Source: Paraprevotella sp.
Lineage (GTDB): Bacteria; Bacteroidota; Bacteroidia; Bacteroidales; Bacteroidaceae
Direction of reading: 5' to 3'
DNA length: 38,304 nt
Assembly (NCBI GenBank): GCA_017937925.1
Contig: JAGBCQ010000026.1
Location: 1-38,304, forward strand
Shown here piece by piece: positions 13,635-36,738 of the stretch (its first letter is position 1; each line of letters opens with the position of its first letter). The notes under the pieces were generated by a model. It made no database searches and was not told the origin of the DNA. It worked only from the letters and a program-made list of their open reading frames with translations. The position numbers were made by a program, and so were the translations under genes.

Positions 13635-14849
13635 ATGTACGACATACAAAAGATAAGAGCGGACTTCCCGATTTTGGGGCGTGAGGTGTACGGCAAACCA
13701 TTGGTCTATTTTGACAATGGCGCCACCACCCAAAAACCACGTTGTGTGGTTGAGGCCATGTCGGAGGAATACTATAATGTCAATGCCAATGTGCATAGAG
13801 GCGTTCATTTCCTTTCTACACAAGCTACCGAACTTCACGAGGGAGCGAGAGAGACCGTGCGCCGATTTATCAATGCACGAAGCACTGCCGAGATTATTTT
13901 TACACGCGGTACGACCGAGAGCATCAATCTTGTAGCCTCCTGTTTCGGCGAAGCTTTCATGAGTGAAGGCGACGAAGTGATTGTGAGCGAGATGGAACAC
14001 CATTCCAACATCGTTCCGTGGCAGTTGCTGGCAGAGCGTAAAGGCATCCGTCTGCGTGTCATCCCCGTAACCGATGCCGGCGAGTTGGATATGGATGCGT
14101 TGGAGCGTTTGTTCTCCGAGCGTACAAAAATTGTCAGTGTGACCCATGTCAGCAATGTGTTGGGAACGGTCAATCCGGTTCGACGGATTATAGAGACGGC
14201 ACATGCCCATAATGTTCCGGTCATGATTGACGGTGCGCAGAGTACGCCCCATTTTGCGGTGGACGTGCAGGAACTTGATGCTGACTTTTACGCTTTCAGC
14301 GGACACAAGATTTATGGACCTACGGGAATCGGTGTGTTGTACGGCAAAGAGCAATGGTTGGACCGTATGCCGCCATATATGGGCGGTGGCGAAATGATTC
14401 AAAGCGTTTCTTTCGAGAGTACCACGTTCAACGAACTGCCTTTTAAGTTTGAGGCAGGAACGCCCGATTACATCGCAGCCACAGGTTTGGCGCGGGCTTT
14501 GGACTACGTCACGGCTTTGGGTATGGACCAAATCTTTGCACACGAACAGCAGTTGACGCGGTACGCCATGGAGCAATTACAAACCATCGACGGGATGCGC
14601 ATCATCGGTACAGCGACAGAACATGATGCTGTGGTCTCCTTTATGTTGGGCGACGTGCATCCTTTGGACGTGGGTACTTTGCTCGACCGCTTAGGGATAG
14701 CCGTTCGCACCGGTCATCATTGTGCCGAGCCGTTGATGCGTAGCTTCGGAGTTCCCGGAACGGTAAGAGCCTCGTTCGGTTTATATAATACCACTGAAGA
14801 AATTGACATTTTGGTCAAAGGTTTGCGCCGTGTCAGTCAGATGTTTTAA
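13635..14849 (+). CDS. sufS: Group II cysteine desulfurase SufS
   Basis: A 404-residue PLP enzyme that removes sulfur from L-cysteine and supplies it as persulfide to SufBCD. The N-terminal IRADFPILGREVYGKPLVYFDNGATTQKP and NVHRGVHFLSTQAT are typical of SufS/CsdA. PLP-lysine is Lys225 in SGHKIYGPTGIGVLYG, and the persulfide-forming residue is Cys363 in RTGHHCAEP, followed by RASFGLYNT. Length matches the family. It lies 12 bp after sufD and ends the operon; a terminator follows at 14880. No sufE, sufU, sufA or sufT is seen nearby, so a sulfur-transfer partner must be encoded elsewhere. Confidence 0.96.
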   Translation: MYDIQKIRADFPILGREVYGKPLVYFDNGATTQKPRCVVEAMSEEYYNVNANVHRGVHFLSTQATELHEGARETVRRFINARSTAEIIFTRGTTESINLVASCFGEAFMSEGDEVIVSEMEHHSNIVPWQLLAERKGIRLRVIPVTDAGELDMDALERLFSERTKIVSVTHVSNVLGTVNPVRRIIETAHAHNVPVMIDGAQSTPHFAVDVQELDADFYAFSGHKIYGPTGIGVLYGKEQWLDRMPPYMGGGEMIQSVSFESTTFNELPFKFEAGTPDYIAATGLARALDYVTALGMDQIFAHEQQLTRYAMEQLQTIDGMRIIGTATEHDAVVSFMLGDVHPLDVGTLLDRLGIAVRTGHHCAEPLMRSFGVPGTVRASFGLYNTTEEIDILVKGLRRVSQMF

Positions 14850-14879
14850 GGCGTTCGTGCCTTTCTCACGATAATTCAA

Positions 14880-14918
14880 GGGGCTGTGTTTATTTTGACA
14901 CAGCCTCTTGTGTTTTTA
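14880..14918 (+). terminator. Rho-independent terminator of the suf operon
   Basis: GGGGCTGTGT (14880-14889) pairs with ACACAGCCTC (14898-14907) around an 8-base loop, followed by a T-rich stretch. The arm GRGGCTGTGT with a TTTTGACA loop recurs in the hairpins at 34099-34137 and, split by an insert, at 29283-29429, so this looks like a reused terminator family in the genome. Confidence 0.85.
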
Positions 14919-14951: not shown

Positions 14952-15055
14952 GTACGCAAAGATGCACGCCGGCGTACACAAAAATGTACTCATGTGTACA
15001 CAAAAATGTACAGAGGCGTACACAAAAATGTACGCAAGAGTACATTAAAATGTAT
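14952..15055. repeat. Five-unit tandem palindrome array with exact 22-bp period
   Basis: Units start at 14952, 14974, 14996, 15018 and 15040, exactly 22 bp apart. Units 2, 3 and 4 are identical (GTACACAAAAATGTAC) and the outer units are diverged (GTACGCAAAGATGCAC and GTACATTAAAATGTAT). Each unit is a dyad, GTACA-N6-TGTAC. The 6-bp spacers differ: gccggc, tcatgt, agaggc, gcaaga. Seen from the other phase, it is ATGTAC-N6-GTACAY joined by AAAA. It lies between the suf terminator and the SusCD promoter region, with no gene inside. The function is unknown. A second array with the same period lies at 36635-36694. Confidence 0.9.
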
Positions 15056-15189
15056 CAAGACCATCTTTTTTATCTCCCCCGTTTCTCTCTTTTTTATTGC
15101 TCGTTTGAACACTCCTTAAATGCTTTTTAAAGTCCGTTTAAGAAAGGTATGACAATAATTAAAACAGTTTCTTTAAATTTTTGGTTGCT

Positions 15190-15388: not shown

Positions 15389-15436
15389 TGAGGCAGAAAA
15401 AACGTGAAAAAACTAACAAAACTTAATAAAATTGTT

Positions 15437-18299: not shown

Positions 18300-21200
18300 A
18301 TGAAAGCAAAATCTATTCTATTCGTTCTTCTCACTTTCTTTTCTGTAAGTGTGTCAGCGCAGAAACGCACCGTGAAAGGAAAGGTAGTGGACAATGCAGG
18401 AAATCCGTTGGAGATGGTGAGTGTACATGTAAAGGGTACAAATGTGGCGACTTATACGGCGAACGATGGCGGCTATTCCATTTCAGCAGCACCCTCAGAT
18501 ACCCTTAGTTTTTCTTTGTTGGGTTACAACAAGTATTTTATTAAGGTGGGCGACCGTAATGATGTGAGCGTGTCGTTGAAAGAAAGCAACGCCTTCAAGA
18601 TGAGCGACCTTGTGGTGACTGGTTACAGTCGTCAGGAACGTCGCGACTTGACGGGTTCTGTATCGTCAGTGAAACCGGACGACAGGATAGGCTTTCAGTC
18701 TGTCGATCAGTTGTTGCAAGGTAAAGCGCCGGGCGTTTATATGAGTAACTCTTCCGGCGCATTGGGTGGAGCTAATCTGTTGACCATTCGCGGTATCAGT
18801 TCTATTATGGGCGACAACAACCCGTTGTATGTCATTGACGGTGTGCCGGTTTACAGTACCGACCGTGATGCCAATAACATGGATGTGTCCGGTGGTGCCA
18901 TACCGGGTATTGCCATGGGTGGAACGCATACAGGTGGCGGAACTTTGAAATACGATCACGAACTGAAATATTCGTTTGAGAGGAACCCCTTGGCAACGCT
19001 CAACCCTGATGACATCGAGTCAATAGAAATATTAAAGGACGCTTTTGCTACCGCCATTTACGGCTCTCGCGGAGCTGCCGGTGTTATCTTGATTACCACG
19101 AAAAAAGGTAGTCGCGACCGTACACAAGTGAATGTCGGTTATACCGTATCAATCGATCGCCCGATGGGAAAGCTCGATTTGCTGAATGGTGACCAATATT
19201 CCGATATATATACAGCTTATTATAAGAAAGGTTTTCCTAGGTTTGCCAATACCGATTGGATTGATGCCGTTACCCGTACTGCTGTAAGTCACGGTGTGAA
19301 TGCTTCCGTGTCAGGCGGACAAGGTAAAACAACCTACTTCATCAGTCTTTCATACGACAACAACCAATCGTACGTTATCAACAATGATATGCAACGTTAT
19401 GCTGCCCGTATGAACTTGAATACCGCCATCAACAAATACTTGGATATGGGATTGAATATGTCGCTTACCAAGTTGAACAACAATGCACTGACAGCAAGTA
19501 ATGTGTATGCGATGGCTTTGAAGAAAGCACCCAATATTCCTGTTTACGATGAGAAGACAGGCGATTATTACTACGGATATGCCCCCAACGAGAAGGGCGA
19601 CCCGGAAGCATACAACCCGGTGGCAATAGCTTATAACAACGATGAAAGTTTGGAAGACACCCGAGTGGTGGGTAATGGTTACTTGGAGTACCGCCCCACA
19701 AGTTGGATTTCTTTGCGCAGCGAGTTGGGAACAGACCTTTACAACTCCTTTACCAATATTCGCAAGCCCGAACTGCCGGAAACATTATCGGGAGTTATCG
19801 GTAATCAGGCATCGGAGTCAACGAGTTTGAAATATAAGATTGTGGTGAACAACACCATCAATATCAATAAGATTTTCGGACAACATTTCTTGCAAGGAGT
19901 GTTGGGACAAAGTTATGAATACACTCAGGAACGTTACAACTCCGTAACGGGAAGTGACTTCTTCAGTCCGGAACTGAACGGTGTGGGAGCAGCGCAAGAA
20001 AAGAGAGTAACCAGCGCTTATATGCGTCAGTATGCGTTGTTCTCGGCATTCGCTCGTTTGAACTACCAATGGAAACATCGTTATATGGCGGGTGTGACCT
20101 ATCGTTTGGACGGTTCGTCACGTTACAACCGCAACCACCGTTATTTGAGTACACCTTCATTCTCTTTAGGTTGGCGAATGTCTGAGGAGAATTTCATTAA
20201 GGACAACTTGAAGTGGGTCGATCAGTTGAAACTCCGTGGCTCGGTAGGTTTGTCAAGTAAGGACGGAAACAACAGTTACTATGGTGCGCAAGCCGTTTAT
20301 AACCTAAATACGTTGACAACTTATGGCGGTCATAGCTATTTGCAAATGTCACAACCCGGTAATGAGAACTTGGATTGGGAGCGTACCATTACCTATGATG
20401 CCGGTTTGGACGTGGAGTTGTTCAAGGGACGTGTGCAGATGACATTCGATTACTTCTATAAGAAGACGACTAATATGTTGTTCTCTTCCGACCTGCCTCT
20501 TTATACAGGTTACACGAAGGAGAATCAGAACATTGCCGACATGATGAATCAAGGAATCGACTTCCAATTGATTACCACCAATATTCAAACCAACGACTTC
20601 CAATGGCAGTCCATATTGAACTTATCACGTTCGACGAATAAGATTTTGAAGTTGAATTTCGAAGGCAACCAGTTGGATCAAGCCAACAGTTCATATAAAT
20701 ATTATGCCGAGGGCGAGCCGGTGGCTCAATGGTATTTGCACGATTGGGTAGGTGTCGATCCTATGACAGGTGACCCCTTGTGGAGATATGCCGATGGTTC
20801 TATCTCAAAGATTCCGCCTGCATCCGATTATGCGAGATCACAGTATAATAAGTTCGTATGCGGTACAGCAATGCCTGATGTTTATGGTTCTTTCACAAAC
20901 ACTTTGATGTATAAGGATTTTGAATTGAATTTTATGTTTACCTTTGCATTAGGCAGTAGAATGATGAACAGTACACGTGCTACATTGTTGACTTACACAC
21001 AATCGGACGCTTGTAACTTGGGTACAGAAATTTTGGAAATGTGGCAGATTCCTGGTCAGCAGACGGACATCCCGAAATTGAACAATGCTTCGGTATTGAA
21101 TGGCTATGACTATACAACGTCTATCACCACGACACGTTTCTTGGAAAACAACTCTTATTTGCGATTGAAGACGTTGACGTTGACTTATAACGTACCACAA

Positions 21201-36286: not shown

Positions 36287-36325
36287 AATGTATGTATGTT
36301 TAATGTTCGCATTTTATTTCGGGTG

Positions 36326-36333
36326 CAAAATTA
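36326..36333 (-). promoter_or_regulatory. -7 element for the PCMD gene
   Basis: On the minus strand TAATTTTG (36333-36326) fits TAnnTTTG and lies 39 nt before the ATG. No clear -33 TTTG is seen. Confidence 0.45.
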
Positions 36334-36395
36334 CGGAGAAAAGTCGGTAATTATTCCCATTTCGGTAGTTTTTTTGGTAGAGGACTCTCCCGAAT

Positions 36396-36430
36396 CCCTC
36401 CGCGAAGACCCACGGCCCCTCCGCGGAAGA
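36396..36430 (-). repeat. GC-rich dispersed repeat, copy on minus strand
   Basis: Read on the minus strand, this block has the sequence pattern GCGGAGGGG-N4-GTGGGTCTTC-GCGGAGGG. A similar copy in opposite orientation lies at 37777-37810 (GCGGAGGGG...GGTGGGTCTTCTGTGGAGGG). The two copies bracket the Fic gene. Such GGAGGGG-rich palindromic repeats are common between genes in this phylum. Confidence 0.6.
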
Positions 36431-36440
36431 CCTTCCCCCG

Positions 36441-36549
36441 GAGGCTGTTTCAAAATATAAATTGACTATCATTTTGTCATTTCGACAGAGCAAAGCGACG
36501 AGAAATCTTATGTGGCAATGTTGAGATTCCTCCCTTCGGTTCGGAATGA
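36441..36549. repeat. Dispersed REP-doublet repeat, copy 2
   Basis: A near-identical second copy of the element at 29283-29390. It retains the left arm GAGGCTGTTTCAAAA and both inner inverted units, but beyond GGAATGA the sequence diverges and the right terminator arm seen in copy 1 is missing. Confidence 0.8.
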
Positions 36550-36634
36550 ACATTTTGTATTGCCCGTCAGGATGACTTCTTAGTGTTATATTGTTGGAAG
36601 GTCGGCAGAAAGACGGGGAGCAAAGGATGGTAAA

Positions 36635-36694
36635 ATGACGGACGTCCGTCATCGTGACGGCGGACGTCTCTCGTCGCGACGCCGGACGTCCGGC
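36635..36694. repeat. Three-unit GGACGTCC palindrome array with 22-bp period
   Basis: Three dyads are centred at 36643.5, 36665.5 and 36687.5, exactly 22 bp apart. Unit 1 is the perfect 18-bp palindrome ATGACGGACGTCCGTCAT, unit 3 contains the perfect 14-bp GCCGGACGTCCGGC, and unit 2 is an imperfect GACGGCGGACGTCTCTCGTC. CGTCGCGACG between units 2 and 3 is also palindromic. It is much more G+C-rich than its surroundings. The period and the 18-plus-4 layout match the array at 14952-15055 although the sequence differs. Confidence 0.85.
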
Positions 36695-36738
36695 ATTTTG
36701 GTAACGAAAGGGCACCATTTTTTAGGCGCAATTTCGAC

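What the first reader, a model, noticed from the sequence alone, without database searches (positions are those of the whole stretch)
14952..15055. Exact 22-bp-period array of five GTACA-N6-TGTAC palindromes
Seen directly: five dyad units begin 22 bp apart without drift, three identical, with four unrelated 6-bp spacers. Conservation of the palindrome with free spacers points to selection on the dyad, and a period of about two helical turns puts all sites on the same DNA face. This would suit cooperative binding by a dimeric protein, a nucleoid or segregation site, or a boundary element downstream of the suf terminator and upstream of the SusCD promoter. I know of no named family for it. Inference beyond the pattern is tentative.
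Basis: partly seen in the sequence, partly recalled or inferred. Interest (0 to 1): 0.72.

Follow-up and report, generated by a model that had tools for sequence, protein, structure and literature searches.

The report
Evenly spaced palindrome triplets between genes
A short DNA element made of about three palindromes exactly 22 base pairs apart sits between genes at many places in this Bacteroidales genome, and related species carry the same 22-base-pair layout built from quite different palindromes, which suggests that the spacing, rather than the sequence, is what is kept.

Summary
The array is real: three identical GTACACAAAAATGTAC units (14974, 14996, 15018) plus one decayed unit on each side, in a 22-bp register. 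It is one of 12 such loci in this genome (28 exact 16-mers); 8 of 12 have exactly three core units, and none lies between divergent genes. Within the genus the GTACA array occurs in 2 of 18 genomes, but the layout is wider. This genome also has GACGTC sites at 22 bp (8 arrays in 560 kb), one in this window at 36641-36690. Congeners and other genera of the family have 22-bp arrays of unrelated dyads. In 1.73 Mb from 17 genomes of the genus, 50 of 66 tandem arrays with a period not divisible by three have period 22; E. coli has none in 200 kb. No Y1 (REP-type) transposase was found in 7 genomes of the genus. Best reading: dispersed non-coding repeats whose constant feature is dyads in two-helical-turn register, as expected if a protein complex docks on one DNA face. 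Protein and function are unknown. Nearest known kinds: REP/BIME, BrickBuilt, PINSR.

The parts
14877..14910 (+). intrinsic-terminator-like hairpin downstream of the sufS-type gene (ORF 13635-14849); the array begins after it
   Evidence: gene by Pfam Aminotran_5
14952..14967 (+). left edge unit, decayed (GTACGCAAAGATGCAC)
14974..14989 (+). core dyad unit 1, GTACACAAAAATGTAC
14996..15011 (+). core dyad unit 2, identical
15018..15033 (+). core dyad unit 3, identical
15040..15055 (+). right edge unit, decayed (GTACATTAAAATGTAT); identical edge unit at C17, one base different at C6b
15105..15142 (+). companion motif: TTNAA/TTAAA repeated every 11 bp, found within about 120 bp of 7 of 12 GTAC arrays
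36641..36690 (.). second-family array in the same window: three GACGTC sites at 36641, 36663, 36685, exactly 22 bp apart; a 134-aa ORF without a Pfam match (36314-36718, - strand) overlaps it

Best explanation
The array is one copy of a dispersed, non-coding repeat whose constant feature is a short run (typically three) of dyad sites held at exactly 22 bp, i.e. two helical turns, so that every dyad faces the same side of the DNA. Shown: the layout, the dispersal, the mainly intergenic placement, and the recurrence of the same 22-bp layout with unrelated dyads within this genome, in congeners and in other genera of the family. Inferred: each dyad is bound by a dimer of a sequence-specific protein and neighbouring dimers touch along one face; the binding specificity turns over quickly between lineages, so each genome has its own dyad families; copies spread or are replaced by transposition-like copying and/or gene conversion. 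The protein could be a mobilising enzyme acting in trans or a chromosomal architectural factor; I lean to the first because copies are present or absent between related species.
For: (1) 12 loci of the GTAC family, 28 exact 16-mers, 8 of 12 with exactly three core units. (2) GACGTC family: in 560 kb of this genome adjacent sites within 60 bp are only ever 22 (11 times) or 44 (2 times) bp apart, 0.8 such pairs being expected by chance, although the intervening 16 bp are only 67% alike; 5 of 8 arrays have three intact sites. Over all palindromic hexamers in the window and L167-L186, spacing 22 is the highest of 8-60 with 18 cases (11 of them GACGTC), the next being 8. (3) In 1.73 Mb from 17 genomes of the genus, period 22 accounts for 50 of 66 tandem arrays with period not divisible by 3 (24 of 34 without the richest genome, G008); shuffled sequence gave 0 at 22 and 3 elsewhere; 72% of the 50 arrays pass the dyad threshold against 14% of the 78 others (threshold). 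(4) G008: 19 arrays of one family in 515 kb; the 15 that I lined up all read as three units, and in 11 of 15 the outer units point inward. (5) One array in another genus strings two unrelated dyad units together without losing register (L277). (6) E. coli: none at 22 in 200 kb. (7) Four GTAC loci share an identical 60-bp core amid different edges. Gaps in G007 corresponding to C3 and C6a have no array, nor has a G001 gap corresponding to a G008 array.
Against: No protein is identified and binding was not tested. Unit number varies (1 to 4 core units; 2 against 4 at one orthologous locus), as in a minisatellite. In G008 and G001 the repeat extends beyond the 22-bp units and can form a long hairpin, so an RNA or cruciform role is not excluded. 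28% of the 22-bp arrays fail the dyad threshold. Periods 21 and 23 also occur. The core-versus-spacer entropy is partly circular, because units were chosen by match to the core. GACGTC was picked from arrays found by the 22-bp scan, so only the absence of other spacings is independent. In the 3 GACGTC arrays without three intact sites the third position matches 3, 5 and 3 of 6 bases, which for the 3s is weak. Arrays of one family are related by descent and are not independent cases.
Confidence: 0.45

Rival explanations
1. Neutral minisatellites: the arrays arise by slippage or unequal recombination on palindromic seeds and have no function; the shared period is an accident of the copying mechanism.
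For: Unit number differs (2 against 4) at the orthologous C25 locus; edge units decay while inner ones stay identical, as in concerted evolution; sequences are lineage-specific.
Against: Period piles up at 22 over unrelated sequences; GACGTC spacing shows no other length although the 16-bp spacers differ at about a third of positions; a two-family array stays in register; unit number clusters at three.
Confidence: 0.22
2. REP/BIME-like or MITE-like selfish palindromes whose hairpin (RNA or single-stranded DNA) is what matters: a substrate for a transposase, or a 3'-end mRNA hairpin.
For: Mainly intergenic, dispersed, palindromic, lineage-specific; none of 12 GTAC and none of 7 GACGTC arrays with two readable flanks lies between divergent genes, against 29 of 104 background gaps; arrays fold far better than shuffles (z about -5 to -8); most lined-up G008 copies are inverted about their middle.
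Against: No Y1 (REP/IS200-type) transposase in 7 of 7 genomes of the genus; GTAC is neither of the GTAG/CGTC tags; hairpins do not require exact 22-bp linkage; G008 does not avoid divergent gaps (4 of 19 against 30 of 107 background gaps); in the window the array lies beyond the suf terminator.
Confidence: 0.2
3. Chromosome-organising sites: loading, segregation, supercoiling or macrodomain sites bound by a nucleoid or partition protein.
For: Many dispersed copies with phased dyads; a companion TTAAA motif phased at 11 bp near 7 of 12 arrays.
Against: Lineage-specific sequence and copy number (12 loci in one 2.06-Mb assembly, 19 per 515 kb in G008); no distribution along a closed chromosome could be tested.
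Confidence: 0.1
4. Operators of one transcription factor (a regulon).
For: Dyads resemble dimer operators; some arrays lie upstream of genes (C23, C3, C22).
Against: Five of 12 are between convergent genes; neighbours are unrelated by Pfam (helicase, AMP-binding enzyme, Na/Pi transporter, GH95, GH31, RadA-like, SufS-like and others).
Confidence: 0.03

Closest known systems
BrickBuilt minisatellite/MITE of Porphyromonas gingivalis (PMC4596501; abstract and 12 passages seen)
   Same: Bacteroidales; short tandem units (23 nt) with a conserved and a variable part; 19 dispersed intergenic copies in one strain; unit number varies between strains; limited to one species group; stem-loops predicted
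   Different: 23 rather than 22 nt, 1 to 22.8 units, leader and tail with IS5-like terminal inverted repeats; the word stem 'palindrom' does not occur in its text; sequence unrelated to the GTAC array
REP/BIME palindromic repeats, GTAG- and CGTC-tagged (PMC3733652; abstract and passages seen)
   Same: Short palindromes, intergenic, dispersed, several families per genome, mostly between co-directional or convergent genes, clustered copies
   Different: No GTAG or CGTC tag in the GTAC family; no Y1/RAYT-type transposase found; a fixed 22-bp spacing of dyads is not named as a REP feature in what I saw
[quoted passage not shown] abstract and section 3.4 read)
   Same: Intergenic, dispersed (177 and 184 copies in two strains), lineage-specific, function unknown; related bacteria (recalled, not tested)
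   Different: 188-bp consensus without terminal inverted repeats; whether it has 22-bp internal units could not be checked because the figure with the consensus is not held

Membership tests
REP/BIME (RAYT-mobilised) | short intergenic palindrome in many copies | tested here: met
   16-bp dyads in about 100-bp arrays, 12 loci here; 19 arrays per 515 kb in G008. The dyad is somewhat shorter than the 20-40 bp given for REPs, and 12 loci is a low copy number
REP/BIME (RAYT-mobilised) | GTAG or CGTC tag at one end | tested here: not met
   GTAC-family units begin and end with GTAC; not tested for the other families
REP/BIME (RAYT-mobilised) | RAYT / Y1 transposase (PF01797) in the genome | tested here: not met
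   0 of 7 genomes of the genus, 5 of them at least 96% complete; G000 and G007 are incomplete; one weak hit (25.3 bits, cut-off 23) in G262 of another genus
BrickBuilt | 23-nt tandem unit of its consensus | tested here: not met
   period 22, different sequence
BrickBuilt / MITE | common leader and tail with terminal inverted repeats | tested here: not met
   300-bp flanks of the 12 arrays share no common leader or tail, only short pairwise similarity such as C23 with C6b (42 and 55 bp at 76%)
MITE | target-site duplication | tested here: inconclusive
   no precise empty site was found
PINSR | 188-bp consensus | not testable with these tools
   consensus figure not held; the window array is 104 bp
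CRISPR array | repeats of 24-48 bp with regularly sized unique spacers | tested here: not met
   16-bp repeat, 6-bp spacers that recur between loci; cas genes not searched
Intrinsic terminator | GC-containing stem followed by a T run | tested here: not met
   the scan calls the hairpin at 14877-14910 and one at 14758-14777 but nothing inside the array on either strand

The most novel reading that the evidence does not exclude
Across Bacteroidaceae-like relatives, intergenic DNA carries a rapidly re-invented class of elements whose only conserved property is geometric: about three dyad sites at exactly 22 bp, read by a conserved protein machine with lineage-variable DNA specificity, i.e. a new class of interspersed element or chromosomal docking site defined by helical register rather than by sequence.
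Probability: 0.3. Interest if true: 0.82.

Novelty: new variant of a known kind. Interest (0 to 1): 0.62.

Why it matters
Short dispersed palindromes in bacteria are normally classified by sequence. Here the sequence turns over between related species while a 22-bp spacing stays, so sequence-based repeat searches would miss that these are one kind of thing. The spacing gives a direct handle: any protein that binds cooperatively should lose cooperativity when half a helical turn is inserted. It might also give a reason for the 22- and 23-nt tandem repeats already reported in P. gingivalis.

Tried and rejected
Single site belonging to the suf operon: rejected, 12 loci. Terminator: none called inside the array. 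Known RNA family: only a tRNA in the window at the gathering threshold. REP/RAYT: rejected on the transposase. Regulon: rejected on gene neighbourhoods. Plasmid or phage origin: no match to the window array in either collection; a viral scan for the GTACA pair gave 2 stretches, not taken as homologues, and one for the G008 unit gave 0. Long hairpin with compensatory changes in G008: no general signal; of 15 pairs of half-sites tested only halves 3 and 6 were alike beyond shuffles (p 0.014, uncorrected), and the halves of the middle unit match less than shuffled ones. Orthologous empty sites: gaps too diverged to show a precise insertion; at the G008 locus the G001 gap is about 380 bp shorter, more than one array. 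For the sufS gap my script found the gene end in 7 of 17 loci, and only the own genome has the array; the other 10 were not read. Single GTAC-pair matches in G101 and G110 are at control level (7 of 399 genomes match the reversed pattern) and get no weight alone. The scan of about 85,000 species' genomes with a fixed 22-bp GTACA pair gave 9 stretches from 7 genomes in several phyla; being found with that query they are not evidence for the period. One search, with the gap left free from 0 to 20, found only period 22 plus two 24-bp cases in six of those genomes. The TTAAA motif was not pursued to a function.

Limits of the period census: stretches of G008 were extended after arrays were seen in its first 120 kb, and G001, G013 and G014 stretches were taken because of a G008 locus; G000 stretches fetched because of known arrays, and G007 and G262, were left out. 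In one search they were not left out: 11 of the 15 period-22 arrays of G000 there are the known GTAC loci and 2 more (L184, L185) were already known. Arrays of one family are not independent, so the binomial value printed is not used. Gene contexts use mechanical ORFs: 6 of the 19 G008 arrays lie inside a called ORF of at least 200 aa (probably spurious in GC-rich DNA, not checked), and the C18 array overlaps the called start of a 916-aa ORF whose Pfam match begins at residue 104.

Full report
What is there. The array at 14952-15055 consists of three identical 16-bp units, GTACACAAAAATGTAC, at 14974, 14996 and 15018, flanked in the same 22-bp register by a decayed unit at 14952 and another at 15040. 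It lies after the terminator-like hairpin (14877-14910) that follows the sufS-type gene and before a Redoxin/AhpC-TSA-type gene whose ORF starts at 15404; a SusC-like TonB receptor gene comes later at 18300. Of 33 exact GTACA-N6-TGTAC places in the genome, 28 have CAAAAA inside, 2 have TAAAAA and 3 are isolated others, so the unit is directional, not a pure dyad with a free centre.

Dispersal in the genome. The window is contig C23 of a 2.06-Mb, 79%-complete genome. A member of the same genus, G007, carries the array at the contig position and contig length of a record titled Paraprevotella sp., so I call the genus Paraprevotella. The 16-mer occurs 28 times exactly, and with near matches in register defines 12 loci. 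Eight of 12 have exactly three core units (at least 14 of 16 matching), one has 4, two have 2 and one has 1, making 33 units. The left edge unit tends to read AAAAGT-GTACGC and three right edges read GTACATTAAAA. Four loci (C3, C22, C29, and C25 with one unit more) share the same 60-bp core with different edges, which speaks for copying or gene conversion of the core. At the only orthologous array found, G007 has 2 units where this genome has 4. G007 gaps corresponding to C3 and C6a, read by eye, have no array.

Placement. With mechanical ORFs, 5 of 12 arrays lie between convergent genes, 7 between co-directional genes and 0 between divergent genes; one of the 12 (C18) overlaps the called start of an ORF. 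For the second family below, 7 of 8 have both flanks readable: 6 co-directional, 1 convergent, 0 divergent. Background gaps of at least 100 bp in this genome: 60 co-directional, 29 divergent, 15 convergent. The neighbours have no common function by Pfam. G008 arrays do not show this bias: 4 divergent, 4 convergent, 11 co-directional of 19 against 30, 28 and 49.

The motif is local, the layout is not. The GTACA pair occurs in 2 of 18 genomes of the genus, own included. A looser GTAC pair occurs in 5 of 399 genomes of the family, of which only this genome and G262 have several, while the reversed control matches once in each of 7 genomes. But loci looked at for another reason showed 22-bp arrays of other dyads in the same genome. 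A scan of tandem periods 13 to 40 gave 15 of 23 arrays at period 22 in 560 kb of this genome (13 of the 15 already known) and 8 of 14 in 349 kb of relatives. In the larger set of 1.73 Mb from 17 genomes of the genus, leaving out stretches fetched because of known arrays, 50 of 66 arrays with a period not divisible by three have period 22 (24 of 34 without G008); shuffled sequence gave none at 22 and three elsewhere; 72% of the 50 pass a dyad threshold that 14% of the 78 other arrays pass (threshold from simulation). Period-22 arrays were seen in 8 of these 17 genomes; the other nine were each sampled with 27 kb or less. Four stretches of E. coli K-12, 200 kb, gave one array, of period 18.

Other families. 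In this genome GACGTC forms 8 arrays in 560 kb, one at 36641-36690 of the window. Neighbouring GACGTC sites within 60 bp are 22 bp apart 11 times and 44 bp apart twice, and at no other distance, while the 16-bp spacers are 67% alike on average (shuffled 31%). Five of 8 have three intact sites; in the other three the third position matches 3, 5 and 3 of 6 bases. The hexamer was picked from arrays found by the 22-bp scan; the spacing itself was left free. G008 carries 19 arrays in 515 kb of GTACT-YTGCGGMR-AGTAC plus a 4-bp spacer; the 15 lined up all read as three units, with weaker related sequence outside, and in 11 of 15 the first and third units point inward. Two of the 19 (L223, L224) share long flanks and are a duplication. 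G001 shares the TTTGCGGCAA centre with different flanks. G013 and G014 have, by eye, yet another unit at an orthologous gap where G008 has its own array and G001 (89% identical on one side, 77% on the other) has none. In other genera of the family, G262 has GTACCA-N4-TGGTAC arrays and G025 and G022 have further ones: 6 of 14 arrays at period 22 in 160 kb from four genomes at a slightly lower threshold. In L277 three units of one kind are followed by three of another kind without loss of the 22-bp register.

Reading. A fixed two-turn spacing over unrelated sequences, with spacer substitutions but no other spacer lengths in the GACGTC family, is what a protein assembly on one DNA face would require. 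That inference is mine; no protein is known. The arrays are dispersed and differ between related species, so they behave as interspersed elements. A neutral minisatellite explains the unit-number change and edge decay but not the common period. A REP-type origin lacks the transposase (0 of 7 genomes of the genus). Strong folding follows from any tandem dyads and does not decide between DNA and RNA roles.

Literature. Ten searches of the held library were run, some on BrickBuilt or REPs rather than on this layout; I saw their listings and opened five papers. Nothing seen describes a 22-bp dyad register in Prevotella or Paraprevotella. BrickBuilt (PMC4596501, abstract and passages) also mentions 22-, 23- and 41-nt tandem repeats in P. 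gingivalis. PINSR (PMC4755523, abstract and section 3.4) is a 188-bp lineage-specific intergenic repeat in Prevotella. REP features come from PMC3733652 (abstract and passages). PMC5771137 was seen in passages only. PMC2267715 was searched for Bacteroid, Porphyromonas, Prevotella, 22 bp and tandem, with no occurrence. Most subscription papers are missing from this library.

Verdict.

Noticed in passing
window 15105-15142; 26 loci in the genome by my grouping: TTNAA/TTAAA repeated every 11 bp: 45 matches with at most one mismatch against 2 for the reversed control; within about 120 bp of 7 of 12 GTAC arrays, and 3 of 9 other such loci inspected lie beside a different 22-bp array.
   Followed up: partly
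window 36641-36690: Second 22-bp array in the same window, three GACGTC sites, 48 bp beyond the 3' end of a Fic/DOC-domain gene on the - strand.
   Followed up: yes
L239:249-348 and L239:402-485 (G011), L244:8789-8846 (G262): 23-bp tandem arrays; one G011 unit (ATAGTATTCCTT) looks by eye like part of the BrickBuilt consensus, and the G262 one lies next to a 22-bp GTAC array.
   Followed up: no
L062, L063, L064, L069 (records titled Myxococcales / Deltaproteobacteria): GTACACCCGGGTGTAC-type dyads at 22 bp in two large genomes, found with a 22-bp query; with the gap left free the same two genomes show only 22.
   Followed up: partly
L065:5073-5306: Repeats about 98 bp apart, each holding two GTACAT..ATGTAC-type dyads 22 bp apart, in a record titled uncultured bacterium.
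   Followed up: no
L192:14815-14916 (G002): Array of period 21 (ATATCTTTAGGTTAGAGATAC), almost five units, with dyad symmetry, between convergent genes.
   Followed up: no
L085 (G012), gap after the sufS-type gene: The gap orthologous to the window array holds, after a terminator-like hairpin, two perfect 12-bp palindromes (ACACCATGGTGT, ACACCGCGGTGT) 45 bp apart, so not in an exact 22-bp register (by eye).
   Followed up: no
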